Source: Deltaproteobacteria bacterium (lineage in GTDB: Bacteria; Myxococcota_A; UBA796; GCA-2862545). From it: a stretch of 38,653 nt of DNA. The stretch is taken from NCBI GenBank assembly GCA_011376105.1, contig DRPG01000192.1, positions 1-38,653 on the forward strand, read 5' to 3'. The translations under genes and the position numbers were made by a program. The notes under the pieces were generated by a model that did not search any database, had not been told where the DNA came from, and saw nothing but the letters and a program-made list of their open reading frames with translations. Positions 13,619 to 27,349 of this stretch are shown here, one piece after another; position 1 is the first letter of the stretch; each line of letters begins with the position of its first letter.

Positions 13619-14611
<993 letters not shown>

Positions 14612-15994: not shown

Positions 15995-18673
15995 CTACGG
16001 CGCCTCCAGCTCATCGAGCAGCAGGCCGGCGATGAACTGGATCCCGAAGAGGGGGGAGCCCGCGCCGTCGGTGGCCTTTCGCCGGGCTGAGGCCTCCAGC
16101 TCGGGGGCCCGTGCGTCGCCGGCCCGGGCCTGGGCGAGCTCTACGAACCCTCGGGCCACCGCCGCGATCCCGCTCGCCTGTCGGGAGTGGAGCCCCTGCA
16201 GCAGCGCGTCGGCACGATCGATGCCCGCCCGGCCCCCGACCAGATCGCCGGTGGTGGCCAGCGCAGCCCCCAGGTAAGACTGCGCCATCGACTCCGACAG
16301 CCGATCCCCCACCGTCTGGAAGTGCTCGATCGCCTCGAAGAACAGGGGCACCGCAGCCCGGGCGTCCCCCATCGCCCACCGCAGGGCGGCCAGGTTCTGG
16401 GTCGCGTGGGCCGCGAACCGGGTGTAGCCGATCTCCCGGAACCGCTGTAGGGCCTCTTCTGCGTGCTCCACCGCCTCCACGTACCGGCGCTGCCCCCCCC
16501 GCAGCAGCGCCAGCCCCATCAGATCGGTGGCATAGCGCCGCCGATCGTCCCAGGCCCTGTGGATCCGCACCGCGGCGAGGATCCGCTGCTCGGACTCCTC
16601 GACCCGGCCAAACTCGAGCAGCAGCAGCCCCAGGTTGGCGTGGCTAAGCCCCGCGCGGCGATCGTTGCCCACCCCCTCCAGCAGTCGGATCGCCTCGAGG
16701 TACTGGCGCTCCGCGACCTCGGGGCGCCCCCGCATCGTGGCAAAGGCCGCGAGCATGCCGAACACCGTGCCCTGCTGATCGCGGTGCTGCCCGCCCTGGG
16801 CCAGCTCCAGGGCCAGCTGGGCCATCGCCTCGGCCTCGTCGAGGCGGGACTGATCGGCGTTGACCAGGGCCAGCCCCATCAGCGCCTCGATCTCGACCAG
16901 GCCGCCGGTCTCGCTGCTGATCTGGAGCGCACGACCCAGATCCTCGCTCGCCTCCTCCATCTCGGCCAGGACCCGCAGGACGCCCGCACGCTCGACCAAC
17001 AGACCGGCCAGCACCAGGGGCTCGGCTCCGCTGGCCTCTGCGTCGGCCACGGCGTCATCGAGCAGGCGCCGGTGCAGGGGGTAGGCCCCCCGGGTGGACA
17101 GCGCAGGCCCCAGCGCGGTCACCGCGGCGATCCCCTCGCCGGGGTGAGCCCGGCGGCGGCGTCGGACCACCGCCAGCAGGTTGTCGATCTCTGCAGCGAG
17201 GCAGCGCAGATCGTCGAGCCCGCCCCGCTGATCGATCCCCCGGGCCAGCTCGGCCCCGAGCCCGAGGTAGTAGGTCGCGTGCCGGGCCTCGGCCTCAGCC
17301 AGCTCCCCCCGCTGCACCAGCCGCTCAGCGGCGTAGTCCCGGATCGACTCGTACAGGGCGAAGCGGACGTCGCCGGGCTGCTCAGCGGGCTCGTAGGCAT
17401 GGATCAGAGACTTGTCGCGCAGGGCCTCGACCAGATCCAGCACCCAGGGGCCGGACTCCGGACGCTGGAGCACGGCCTCGGCCGCGTCCAGGGTGAAGCC
17501 TCCGGAGAAGGTGGAGCACCACGCGAGGGCCCGCTGCTGGGGCTCCGACAGCAGCCCCCAGGACCAGTCGATCGCGTGACGCAGGGCTCCACCCCCCGAG
17601 TCCCGCCCCCAGGCCAGCACCTTGAACCGCTGATCGAGCCGATCGTGGAGTTGATCGAGGGAGAGCACCCGGGCGCGGGGGGCCGCGAGCTCGATCGCCA
17701 GGGGCAACCGATCGAGCCGATCGACGATCCGATCGAGGCTCACACGGTCGTCGCTCTGGAGGGTGGCCCCGGACGCCTCCACCCGATCGACGAACAGCTC
17801 CCGGGCCTCCGCGGGCGCGAGGGGGCCGACCTCGACGGCGTGCTCCCCTGCGATCCGCAGGCGCTCCTCGCTGGTGACCAGGAACCTCGCCCGGGGCGCG
17901 CGCTCGACCCAGACCCCCAGCGCCTCCCGGGCCTGGTTCACCACGTGCTCAAACCCATCGAGCAGGACCAGGACGCGGCCCCGGGCATCCAACGCCACCC
18001 CCAGGGTCTCGATCATCGAGTCCTCGCCGCCGGTCAGGGGCACCCCCAGCACCGCCCCCACCGTGGCCACCACCCCCGCCAGCCCCTCGGCGGTGGACAG
18101 CTCGCACAGCCAGGCGCCCCCGGGCCAGTCATCGAGGTGATCAGCAGCGAACCGGGTGGCGAGGCGGGTCTTGCCGATCCCCCCCGGCCCGAGCAGGCTC
18201 ACCACCCGAGCGTCTCCAGCGAGCAGCGACGCGATCTCGGACAGCTGGGCGGTCCGGCCGACGAACGAGGAGCGCTCGGGTCGCAGGTTAGAGCGGGGCA
18301 TGTCGGGGGAGGGGGCGGCGCAGACGGAGGACACCACCAGGGGGACCTCGGGGGGAGGCACGTAGCGGTAGCCGACGCCGTGCACCGCGATCAGGTGCAC
18401 TGGGTTCTGAGGATCGGGCTCCACCTTCGCCCGCAGGCGCCGCATGGCGACATCCACCGCACGGGTCGCATAGTCCGCCCGGTACTCCCACACCTGCTCC
18501 AGCAGCTCGTCGCGGGAGATGTCCTCCTTGGGACGCTTCGACAGGTAGCCGAGCAGCTGCGTCTCCCGGGTGGTCAGGGTCTTGGTGGAGCCATCCGGGA
18601 ACACGACCGCTTGCCGGATGAGATCGACCCGCCGGTCGGCGAGCTTGACGATGTGCTCGACCTCCCCTGTCAC
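15995..18673 (-). CDS. OmpR-type winged-helix regulator with NTPase and TPR domains
   Basis: An 892-residue cytoplasmic transcription regulator. Residues about 10-105 form an OmpR/PhoB-type winged helix (LTTRETQLLGYLSKRP, ISRDELLEQVW, RAVDVAMRRLRAKVE, LIAVHGVGYRYVPP). A P-loop NTPase follows: FVGRTAQLSEI, Walker A LGPGGIGKT (residues 161-169), Walker B-like VLVLLDGFEHV, ARFLVTSEERL and the LPLAIELAAPRA motif of STAND ATPases. The C-terminal half is an array of TPR helices (for example LSHANLGLLLLEFGRVEESE and FAAHATQNLAALRWAMGDARA). The layout resembles AfsR/SARP-like and predicted-ATPase regulators, with TPRs sensing a ligand or partner. GTG 18673 has GGAGGG close upstream; longer in-frame extensions run through the opposite FHA gene. 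It is divergent from that gene by 190 bases and may control it; that is inference. Confidence 0.9.
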   Translation of the reverse strand: MTGEVEHIVKLADRRVDLIRQAVVFPDGSTKTLTTRETQLLGYLSKRPKEDISRDELLEQVWEYRADYATRAVDVAMRRLRAKVEPDPQNPVHLIAVHGVGYRYVPPPEVPLVVSSVCAAPSPDMPRSNLRPERSSFVGRTAQLSEIASLLAGDARVVSLLGPGGIGKTRLATRFAADHLDDWPGGAWLCELSTAEGLAGVVATVGAVLGVPLTGGEDSMIETLGVALDARGRVLVLLDGFEHVVNQAREALGVWVERAPRARFLVTSEERLRIAGEHAVEVGPLAPAEARELFVDRVEASGATLQSDDRVSLDRIVDRLDRLPLAIELAAPRARVLSLDQLHDRLDQRFKVLAWGRDSGGGALRHAIDWSWGLLSEPQQRALAWCSTFSGGFTLDAAEAVLQRPESGPWVLDLVEALRDKSLIHAYEPAEQPGDVRFALYESIRDYAAERLVQRGELAEAEARHATYYLGLGAELARGIDQRGGLDDLRCLAAEIDNLLAVVRRRRRAHPGEGIAAVTALGPALSTRGAYPLHRRLLDDAVADAEASGAEPLVLAGLLVERAGVLRVLAEMEEASEDLGRALQISSETGGLVEIEALMGLALVNADQSRLDEAEAMAQLALELAQGGQHRDQQGTVFGMLAAFATMRGRPEVAERQYLEAIRLLEGVGNDRRAGLSHANLGLLLLEFGRVEESEQRILAAVRIHRAWDDRRRYATDLMGLALLRGGQRRYVEAVEHAEEALQRFREIGYTRFAAHATQNLAALRWAMGDARAAVPLFFEAIEHFQTVGDRLSESMAQSYLGAALATTGDLVGGRAGIDRADALLQGLHSRQASGIAAVARGFVELAQARAGDARAPELEASARRKATDGAGSPLFGIQFIAGLLLDELEAP

Positions 18674-18863
18674 ATGCCCTCCAGACACCGACGCTTCGAA
18701 ACTTGTGGGTTGACTGGGTCGTTTCCTGCAGAATACCCCGGCCCCGGTGACAGAGCCTCCAGGGTCGGCGCCGTCACCTATCGACACCGCAGACCAATTC
18801 CTGGTTCCTGCACCGGACCCTGTGGGCTGGTAGCATCTGCGGCTCAGGAGGGAGACGGTCGAC
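18674..18863. promoter_or_regulatory. Divergent promoter region, regulator / FHA gene
   Basis: These 190 bases separate two genes that point outward and must hold both start regions. The FHA gene has AGGAGGGAGA ahead of its ATG; TAGCAT near 18832 could be a -10. No clear operator repeat was found by eye. Confidence 0.4.
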
Positions 18864-20708
18864 ATGGCCTCGAACAACACAAGCGAGCTCCGAAGGCAAG
18901 CACCCGGCTGGATCCGGGACACCCGATCGGATCTCAGGTACGGGCTCGAGGGCCTCCGCAGCGCTTTGCACACAGCGCTAGACGATCTCGCGTCGGAGCT
19001 CGCGGCCCAGGGCCAGGGCGACGTCGCGTCCCTCGACGTGATCGAGCAGCAGGCGGCGGCGTTCCTGGTCCACACCCGGCGGGAGCTGACCGGCCTGTGG
19101 GATCGGCTGGAGGAGGCGTTCGTCGATCGGCTCCAGCCCCTGGTCCGATCCGCTGAGCGGGGCCAGGAGCCGTCCCTGGGCCGGGCCAGGATCGCACAGC
19201 AGGAGTGGCTGCTCAGCCTCCACCACCACAAGACGACGGTGGTGCAGTACACCTCGGGCTGGATCGAGGGGGGAGGGGTCGCCCTGACCCTGATGACTGG
19301 CCTCGAGCCCCACGAGGCCTCCGACGTCCAGCGCTGCCAGGGCCTGCTGCGCGAGCGCATGAGCTTCATCGCCGATCGTAGCGAGGCCGGCCTCAGCCAG
19401 TGGATCGACGAGGTCCAGCGGGGGCTGGAGAGCTTGATCGGCCGGATCAGCCCGGCTCAGGCCCCGGCCGCCTCCACCCCAGAGCTGCGGGCCGCCCGCC
19501 TCGACGAGCTGCTGGGCAAGGCCGACGCGCTGAAGGTCCGGATCCGCAACGTGCCCAACGATCCGTCGGATCGCTACCTCGACAAGCTCGAGACCCAGCT
19601 CGCGGGCATCGCCGAGAAGCGGGCGCAGAAGCTGGCGGCCCGCGACGCCCGTCAGGCGCGGCTGGCCGATCTGCTGGTGTTCGCCGAGCGGCTCAACGTC
19701 CGGGCCCGGGGCGTGCCGGATAACCCGAGCGACGCCTGGCTCGACAAGATGGAGGCCAAGCTCACAGAGATCGCCGATCGCAAGGGGATCGAGCTGCCTC
19801 AGGGGGTCCAGCCGCCCTCCCCACGGGAGACCCGCTCCACCGGCGAGCCCGCACCACAGCGGGTGGCCGCTCCTCCGACCTCGCTGCGGGTCCAGGAGCT
19901 GATCCACAGGGCCGAAGACGCGAACCTCCCCCTGGGTCGGATCCCCGACGCCCCCTCGGACGACTGGGTCTCCGAGATGGAGGGTCGCCTGGAGACAGCG
20001 CTGCAGGAGCAGCGGGATCACCGTCAGCAGGAGCGTAGGCAGCGTAGGCAGCGTCTGGATCAGCTCGTCCAGCAGGCCATTGAGGCCGGCGCAGATCTGG
20101 GCGAGATCCCCGATGATCCCACGGAGTCCTGGTTCGCCGCCGCCGAGCGGCAGATCACGGCCGCGATCGAGGCCAGGGCCCTGGCCTCGGCCCCCGTCGC
20201 CCAGCCCCCGGCGTTCGACGCCAAGCGCCTAGCTGAGATCCAGCGCGCCGCCGCCGCCGCCGGGATCCACCTCGGCGAGCTCCCCAGCCACCCCACGGAC
20301 GACTGGCTCGCCTGGGCCGAGCACCGGATCCGCGAGGCCCGGGACGCCGAGGCCGCCCTCGCGGTCGAGTCCCCCACCGCGAGCGTGGCCTCGTCGGCCT
20401 ACCTGGTCTACGAGGAGGGCACGGTGCAGGAGCAGATCTGGCCCGTCGGGCAGGAGGAGATCTCGATCGGGCGCTCGAGGGGCAACACCATCCAGATCCG
20501 CGACGACGCAGCGGTCAGCCGGCGCCACGCGGTGCTCCAGATCCACAGCGGCCAGTACATCCTGCGGGATCTGAACTCGACCAAGGGCACCTACGTCGAC
20601 GATCAGCAGATCGACATCGAGCGGGTGCTCCACGGGGACGAGGTGGTCCAGTTCGGCGACACCTGGTTCACCTTCCGGCTCGGCCCGGCCCCCACGATCG
20701 CGCGCTGA
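18864..20708 (+). CDS. FHA-domain protein with five ~41-residue repeats
   Basis: A 614-residue, apparently cytoplasmic protein. Residues 512-606 form a C-terminal forkhead-associated domain that binds phosphothreonine peptides: ISIGRSRGNTIQI (533-545), the SRRH core (552-555) and LNSTKGTYV (570-578) are all present. Before it lie five degenerate repeats (212-252, 266-306, 342-383, 397-438, 455-494): each has a helix starting RL, then a loop of the form I/VPxxPS/TDxW, then a second helix beginning with an acidic/aromatic pair. The N-terminal 200 residues are helical and of no family I know. The repeat looks undescribed to me. ATG 18864 has AGGAGGGAGA upstream. It is divergent from the wHTH/TPR regulator and convergent with the lectin gene (3-base gap). 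Ser/Thr kinases in this window could be its partners, but no contact is shown. Confidence 0.85.
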   Translation: MASNNTSELRRQAPGWIRDTRSDLRYGLEGLRSALHTALDDLASELAAQGQGDVASLDVIEQQAAAFLVHTRRELTGLWDRLEEAFVDRLQPLVRSAERGQEPSLGRARIAQQEWLLSLHHHKTTVVQYTSGWIEGGGVALTLMTGLEPHEASDVQRCQGLLRERMSFIADRSEAGLSQWIDEVQRGLESLIGRISPAQAPAASTPELRAARLDELLGKADALKVRIRNVPNDPSDRYLDKLETQLAGIAEKRAQKLAARDARQARLADLLVFAERLNVRARGVPDNPSDAWLDKMEAKLTEIADRKGIELPQGVQPPSPRETRSTGEPAPQRVAAPPTSLRVQELIHRAEDANLPLGRIPDAPSDDWVSEMEGRLETALQEQRDHRQQERRQRRQRLDQLVQQAIEAGADLGEIPDDPTESWFAAAERQITAAIEARALASAPVAQPPAFDAKRLAEIQRAAAAAGIHLGELPSHPTDDWLAWAEHRIREARDAEAALAVESPTASVASSAYLVYEEGTVQEQIWPVGQEEISIGRSRGNTIQIRDDAAVSRRHAVLQIHSGQYILRDLNSTKGTYVDDQQIDIERVLHGDEVVQFGDTWFTFRLGPAPTIAR

Positions 20709-22487: not shown

Positions 22488-22910
22488 TCACTCGATCCCT
22501 GCATCGCCTCTGCGGATCTTCCCCGTGGCCAGCAGGCTGGTGAGGTGCTCCCGCCAGGCGAGATCGGAGAGGCTCAGCAGCGCCGCGGCCTCGGACAACA
22601 GGTCAGCCTCCTCTGCGGCGAGGACCCCGTCGGACGCGGCCGCCTCGATCAGCAGATCGAGCAGGGCGAGCTTCTGCCCCTGGGTCAGCCCGGCGGGCAG
22701 GGCCTCGAGCGCCTCGGCCCTCGCCTCGGTGAACGCCTCGGTCAGCCGGCCCCGGGCGTCGATGAAGCCGCAGGTCCGCAGCAGATCCGGAGGGAAGGTG
22801 TCGTCGAGGAACGACAGCTCCACCGAGTCGACCACCGTGTCCGAGCCGATGATCCGCTGGATCATGTCGTAGGCAAACGCCAGCTGTAGCGCGTTGAGGT
22901 TCGTGGACAC
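22488..22910 (-). CDS. TerB-like protein, 140 aa
   Basis: The second half matches the TerB/DjlA-N helical fold: GLTQGQKLALLDLLIEAAASDGVLAAEEADLLSEAAALLSLSD has the family pattern of a long helix, the acidic loop ASDGVL and AEEADLL before the next helix. TerB-type domains occur in tellurite-resistance operons and as envelope-stress or membrane-associated modules; no other ter gene is here. The first half (about 60 residues) is of no family I know. No signal peptide. GTG 22910 (VSTNLNALQLAFAYDMIQ) has GGAGG 6 nt upstream. It sits between the methyltransferase-like membrane gene (102-base gap upstream) and the lectin gene (45-base gap downstream), all on the minus strand, which suggests one transcription unit. 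Confidence 0.72.
   Translation of the reverse strand: MSTNLNALQLAFAYDMIQRIIGSDTVVDSVELSFLDDTFPPDLLRTCGFIDARGRLTEAFTEARAEALEALPAGLTQGQKLALLDLLIEAAASDGVLAAEEADLLSEAAALLSLSDLAWREHLTSLLATGKIRRGDAGIE

Positions 22911-24808: not shown

Positions 24809-24812
<4 letters not shown>
23013..24812 (-). CDS. Large membrane protein with an isoprenylcysteine-methyltransferase-like C-terminus
   Basis: A 599-residue integral membrane protein. Two N-terminal stretches (LYVLGLILGGLVLALAP, then an extracytoplasmic-looking domain of about 170 residues rich in beta-type sequence) precede at least seven hydrophobic segments. The last 90 residues match the ICMT/PEMT (NnrU-like) methyltransferase end: FFTAVRHPSYTLEALMF (RHPxYxxE) and then EDHFLGVAMGPEHEAYRRQV, the SAM-binding pattern of the family. 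The other halves resemble no family I recognise, so this looks like a novel multidomain arrangement. GTG 24812 has GGGGAGGAG upstream and overlaps the kinase-ATPase stop by four bases (GTGA), so translation is coupled to that gene. A lipid or modified-peptide methyl acceptor is possible. Confidence 0.78.

Positions 24813-27349
<2,537 letters not shown>

What the first reader, a model, noticed from the sequence alone, without database searches (positions are those of the whole stretch)
18864..20708. FHA protein with five copies of an unrecognised ~41-residue repeat
Each copy has two helices joined by a loop matching PxxPS/TDxW. The loop is the most conserved part: VPNDPSDRY, VPDNPSDAW, IPDAPSDDW, IPDDPTESW, LPSHPTDDW. 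The repeats occupy residues 212-494 and precede a complete FHA domain. I know of no named repeat with this pattern.
Basis: partly seen in the sequence, partly recalled or inferred. Interest (0 to 1): 0.65.

Follow-up and report, generated by a model that had tools for sequence, protein, structure and literature searches.

The report
Unnamed helical-hairpin repeat in FHA protein
A myxobacterium-like bacterium makes a protein with five copies of a small, previously unnamed two-helix repeat in front of a phosphothreonine-reading (FHA) domain; the repeat is real but very narrowly distributed, with likely single-copy cousins attached to protein kinases in one related genome.

Summary
Confirmed. The 614-residue protein at 18864-20708 (+) holds five ~49-residue copies (residues 207-256, 261-309, 337-386, 392-440, 450-499), each helix, 13-residue loop with [VIL]-P-x-x-P-[STD]-[DE]-x-[WY], helix. 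Leave-one-out E-values are 1e-7 to 1e-11; a profile from other genomes scores 45-62 bits per copy against at most 16 in 2000 local shuffles. AlphaFold2 on 20 copies gives a two-helix unit (pLDDT 88.7) without significant Foldseek match; Pfam, NCBIfam, PHROGs and PDB sequences name no family. TPR and HEAT are not supported. An FHA domain follows.

Full-length relatives (4, 5 and 6 copies plus FHA) occur in only three other genomes, all of the same family. Three Ser/Thr kinases in one genome of another family of the order carry a probable single copy just after the kinase domain. The loop's S/T/D looks like a helix N-cap, so phosphorylation is not implied. Most likely role: a cytosolic phospho-signalling scaffold, FHA docking to phosphothreonine and paired hairpins forming a hinged helical arm. 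The repeat's function is inferred, not shown. A new, small, lineage-restricted repeat family on a known kind of protein: modest interest.

The parts
18864..20708 (+). gene for the repeat-FHA protein, 614 aa
   Evidence: ORF; GC by codon position; homologues in three other genomes
18876..19448 (+). N-terminal long helices, residues 5-195; kept in G001, reduced in G009, absent in G014
   Evidence: AlphaFold2 model, alignment, search
19482..19631 (+). repeat copy 1, residues 207-256, loop VPNDPSDRY
19644..19790 (+). repeat copy 2, residues 261-309, loop VPDNPSDAW; best conserved copy
19791..19871 (+). Pro-rich linker between copies 2 and 3, residues 310-336, predicted disordered
   Evidence: pLDDT below 50 at 315-338; Pro-rich in all four relatives
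19872..20021 (+). repeat copy 3, residues 337-386, loop IPDAPSDDW
20037..20183 (+). repeat copy 4, residues 392-440, loop IPDDPTESW; joined to copy 3 by a continuous charged helix (366-408)
20211..20360 (+). repeat copy 5, residues 450-499, loop LPSHPTDDW
20391..20681 (+). FHA domain, residues 510-606, core R537, S552, H555
   Evidence: PF00498 E 8.2e-16; invariant in four relatives; Foldseek to GarA, OdhI, FhaA

Best explanation
A soluble phospho-signalling scaffold. Shown by sequence or prediction: a C-terminal FHA domain with an intact phosphothreonine-binding core, preceded by five copies of a two-helix unit in which neighbouring copies 1+2 and 3+4 are predicted to share one continuous long helix, the pairs being separated by flexible hinges, with long helices at the N-terminus. 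The loop [VIL]-P-x-x-P-[STD]-[DE]-x-W is most likely structural: S/T/D is the helix-2 N-cap; that W packs between the helices and that R6 and E37 form an inter-helix salt bridge are inferences. Also inferred: the FHA domain binds a phosphothreonine on a Ser/Thr kinase or its substrate, and the array acts as a jointed helical arm that spaces it from, or docks, a second partner, the N-terminal helices giving oligomerisation. It probably arose when the array became joined to a duplicate of the order-wide coiled-coil FHA protein. Which partner the repeat binds is unknown.
For: FHA domain and core residues. Repeat unit and structure. S/T/D in 20 of 20 copies just before helix 2, D or E next in 17 of 20, W/Y in 20 of 20: the pattern of a helix N-cap. 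Copies keep position identity across genera (9 label changes on the tree against 15.5 shuffled, 0 of 200 as low). Copy number varies 4, 5, 5, 6 while repeats plus FHA stay constant and the N-terminal region is lost in G014. Copy 2 and FHA are the best conserved parts (73% and 62% identity to G001, 45% for the N-terminal region). Probable single copies just C-terminal to the kinase domain in three Ser/Thr kinases of G037 put the unit in the same signalling context. The FHA shares a YxEGTxxEQ strand with a near-invariant coiled-coil FHA protein of the order.
Against: No partner is known. Most neighbours are not conserved; only the TerB-like gene lies beside it in the same-genus relative. Full-length model pTM is 0.36, so the relative placing of the units is not reliable, and coordinates could not be inspected. 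The kinase copies are weak matches chosen by the profile itself. Nothing here shows that the arm does more than separate two ends.
Confidence: 0.5

Rival explanations
1. Passive spacer: the hairpins only set the distance between the N-terminal helices and the FHA domain and bind nothing.
For: Copy number varies between relatives (4, 5, 5, 6); copies 4 and 5 are weakly conserved (37% and 42% to G001).
Against: Copies keep position identity across genera; copy 2 is more conserved than the FHA domain (73% against 62%); single copies on kinases (if true relatives) would be odd spacers.
Confidence: 0.22
2. Homotypic adaptor: the unit pairs with the same unit on kinases, as effector-associated domains do, bringing kinase and FHA reader together.
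For: The unit appears to occur both on FHA proteins and on kinases.
Against: In no searched genome do both forms occur: G000, G001, G009 and G014 have only the FHA form, G037 only the kinase form. The genomes are incomplete (77-90%).
Confidence: 0.1
3. Phospho-acceptor array: the S/T in P-x-x-P-[ST]-[DE] of each loop is phosphorylated by a Ser/Thr kinase, so the array counts or displays phosphates.
For: S/T in 17 of 20 copies in a conserved context, in a kinase-rich lineage.
Against: The other three copies have D, and the residue sits exactly at the predicted helix-2 N-cap, which explains S/T/D without phosphate.
Confidence: 0.08

Closest known systems
GarA / OdhI / FhaA-type bacterial FHA proteins
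   Same: FHA fold and phosphothreonine-binding core; Foldseek E 1.9e-8 to 6.5e-7
   Different: Solved matches cover only the FHA domain; none of them carries this repeat. NCBIfam FhaB and OdhI cut-offs are not reached
Order-wide coiled-coil FHA protein (no family name; copy in this genome at G000:C170:24061-24357, L002)
   Same: Homologous FHA with the shared YxEGTxxEQ strand, 40% identity; likely paralogue
   Different: Coiled coil and acidic linker instead of the repeats; no repeat detected
Helical repeats: TPR, HEAT, spectrin-like
   Same: Tandem helical units; continuous helices between units recall spectrin (general knowledge)
   Different: No sequence match; the conserved 13-residue PxxP[STD][DE]xW loop is not part of them; Foldseek gives only generic hairpins such as PRC1 at E 6
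Ser/Thr kinase linkers of G037 (kinase + unit + FGE-sulfatase or TM)
   Same: One P/x-[STD]-xx-W helix-loop-helix unit just after the kinase domain
   Different: Single copy and diverged; two have 1-2 residue loop insertions and one (L070) is a residue shorter; no FHA

Membership tests
FHA domain proteins (PF00498) | FHA profile above gathering score | tested here: met
   58.6 bits against a cut-off of 20.7
FHA domain proteins (PF00498) | conserved pThr-binding residues GR and S-x-x-H | tested here: met
   G536, R537, S552, H555 invariant in four relatives
FHA domain proteins (PF00498) | binding of phosphothreonine peptides | not testable with these tools
   needs a binding assay
TPR | TPR profile match, 34-residue consensus | tested here: not met
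   no TPR hit at E up to 10 in the protein or E up to 1 in 20 copies; unit is 41-49 residues with a 13-residue loop
HEAT | HEAT profile match | tested here: not met
   no hit
Known two-helix folds with a long loop (LEM/SAP-like, peripheral-subunit-binding) | significant structural match | tested here: not met
   best Foldseek E 2.6; emerin LEM only at E 8-10 with TM below 0.55
The PxxP[STD]xxW repeat defined here: kinase members in G037 | profile match over the full unit | tested here: inconclusive
   three matches at E 0.001-0.002 per genome before inclusion; all three in kinases at the same place, 0 of 27 other weak-match loci contain a kinase; hhalign 93.8% but post-selection

The most novel reading that the evidence does not exclude
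The unit is the first seen member of a new signalling module of Myxococcota, single-copy on Ser/Thr kinases and tandem on FHA proteins, that binds a common partner and so recruits kinase and phosphothreonine reader to the same place.
Probability: 0.2. Interest if true: 0.55.

Novelty: new variant of a known kind. Interest (0 to 1): 0.36.

Why it matters
It adds an undescribed helical repeat, absent from Pfam, to the phosphothreonine-signalling repertoire of a bacterial group that is very rich in Ser/Thr kinases and whose wiring is largely unknown. If the kinase copies are true relatives, the unit marks a kinase/FHA recruitment module that can be tested directly. Its small phylogenetic range keeps the general importance modest.

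Tried and rejected
Known-repeat assignment: rejected. PHROG 7393 at E 0.014 over 30 residues left as chance. The SEFIR/TIR-looking match in G023 and the other weak matches outside G037 were read and judged chance: unrelated proteins, mostly partial units. Weak matches of the enlarged profile in G001, G002, G026, G052, G053 and G057: chance. Other FHA proteins of the order do not contain the unit, nor do the closest other kinases. Another class of the phylum: none in 57 genomes. Viral contigs: none. The first genome-contig scan with the single protein found nothing; the alignment scan found the three relatives. The FHA tree with remote FHA domains was unresolved through long branches; without them the repeat-FHA proteins split from the order-wide ones (89/81), but branches remain long. 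The tree did not group the three kinase copies together, as expected for 49 diverged columns. Literature searches for an FHA protein with such a repeat gave nothing relevant.

Full report
Observation. The ORF 18864-20708 (+) encodes 614 residues, with the GC pattern by codon position expected of a gene here (0.74/0.48/0.91); the long antisense ORF shows the mirror pattern. The five loops VPNDPSDRY, VPDNPSDAW, IPDAPSDDW, IPDDPTESW and LPSHPTDDW are present. A profile built from the copies places them at residues 207-256, 261-309, 337-386, 392-440 and 450-499. Each copy is recovered by a profile of the other four at E 4e-7 to 1e-11 (for 20,000 sequences), and by a profile built only from other genomes at 45-62 bits, against a best of 16.2 bits in 2000 locally shuffled proteins. 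An unsupervised self-comparison gives the same pairs.

Relatives. Searching 142 relatives found full-length homologues in three genomes: G001 (same genus, 51% identity, five copies), G014 (six copies) and G009 (four copies), all in the same family. They are public as JAHQVJ010000210 (Myxococcales MAG), PKDJ01000238 and CANLGQ010000120. A 20-copy profile finds the repeat in these four genomes and no others among 63 genomes of the order at E <= 0.001. A sample of 379 genomes of the phylum adds only weak matches. Nothing was found in viral contigs or in 57 genomes of another class.

Shape of the unit. Over 20 copies the invariant or nearly invariant positions are R6, A14, P25, P28, [STD]29, W/Y32 and E37, with mainly hydrophobic residues at 7, 10, 19, 21, 24, 33 and 40. 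AlphaFold2 with the 20 copies gives helix 2-16, loop 17-29, helix 30-47 at mean pLDDT 88.7. S/T/D29 sits just before helix 2 and is followed by D/E in 17 of 20: this is the pattern of a helix N-cap (general knowledge of protein structure), so the S/T should not be read as a phosphosite without data. The full-length model (pLDDT 79, pTM 0.36) has the second helix of copy 1 continuous with the first of copy 2 (236-276), likewise copies 3 and 4 (366-408), low-confidence hinges at 315-338 and 443-450, long N-terminal helices to residue 195 and a C-terminal beta domain. The packing between units cannot be trusted at this pTM.

Known families. No Pfam hit for the repeat in the protein or in any of 20 copies beyond chance, none in NCBIfam or PDB sequences, one short E 0.014 match in PHROGs. 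Foldseek finds no significant match for the unit in the PDB (best E 2.6) or among viral models (best E 1.7). No library of predicted cellular structures was available, so an unnamed fold relative there is not excluded.

FHA domain. PF00498 scores 58.6 bits. The model matches GarA, OdhI and FhaA FHA domains. G536, R537, S552 and H555 are invariant in the four relatives. The nearest other FHA domains are those of a near-invariant order-wide protein with a coiled coil and an acidic linker, sharing the YxEGTxxEQ strand; without remote outgroups the repeat-FHA proteins form one side of a branch (89/81). I infer a paralogue that diverged fast and gained the array, but the tree has long branches.

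History of the array. Copies keep their position identity across genera: labels by position need 9 changes on the tree against 15.5 in shuffles, none of 200 as low. The duplications thus mostly predate the split of these genera, and each copy has been under its own constraint; copy 2 is the best conserved (73% to G001, 57% to G009). The N-terminal helices are conserved in G001, reduced in G009 and absent in G014, so repeats plus FHA is the constant core.

Kinase link. Three of the weak matches of the phylum scan lie in one genome, G037, of another family of the order, and all three are Ser/Thr kinases in which the match follows the kinase domain directly: two kinase + unit + FGE-sulfatase proteins (L087, L070; the FGE-sulfatase part named from sequence inspection, not by a profile) and one kinase + unit + coiled coil and membrane helix (L088). 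None of the 27 other weak-match loci examined contains a kinase. All three keep S/T/D at the cap position and W. Profile-profile comparison places the unit on the right segment with 93.8% probability, though these sequences were chosen by the profile, so that figure is inflated. Other close G037 kinases lack the unit. I rate common origin as likely but not proven.

Surroundings. Upstream and divergent is a winged-helix, NB-ARC/AAA, TPR regulator; downstream are a lectin/MopE protein, a TerB-like protein, a protein without Pfam match and a kinase-AAA protein. In G001 the next gene is the TerB-like gene, 61% identical; in G009 and G014 the scanned neighbours differ. There is no strong operon evidence on function.

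Function. The best-supported reading is a cytosolic pThr-reading scaffold with a jointed helical arm. FHA binding capacity is predicted from conserved residues; the role of the arm is inferred from architecture. Rivals are a passive spacer, a homotypic adaptor and a phospho-acceptor array; none is excluded. FHA proteins acting as phospho-dependent recruiters are documented, for example Fha with phosphorylated TssL (PMC3953482) and Bdellovibrio DgcB (PMC6733907); of these I saw only the start of the abstracts.

Verdict. It is a small, lineage-restricted family on an otherwise familiar type of protein.

Noticed in passing
L087, L070, L088 (G037:C53, C145, C97): Three Ser/Thr kinases with a probable single copy of the same unit right after the kinase domain; two go on into what looks like an FGE-sulfatase domain.
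   Followed up: partly
L002, L012-L037 (e.g. G000:C170:24061-24357): A near-invariant coiled-coil + acidic linker + FHA protein (ALLLYQEGTAEEQIYPF...) recurs across the order; its strong FHA conservation suggests a core function.
   Followed up: partly
22488-22910 (-): TerB-like protein, 61% identical to the gene next to the FHA gene in the same-genus relative (L045).
   Followed up: partly
15995-18700 (-): Winged-helix + NB-ARC/AAA + TPR regulator divergent from the FHA gene; a 35% identical regulator lies about 4 kb downstream of the FHA gene in G001.
   Followed up: partly
13619-14611 (+): ORF with a long Asp-Ala alternation and a C-terminal Thr-Gly-rich repeat tract.
   Followed up: no
24809-27349 (-): Ser/Thr kinase fused to an AAA_16 domain, about 4 kb downstream of the FHA gene; a possible client of the FHA domain.
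   Followed up: no
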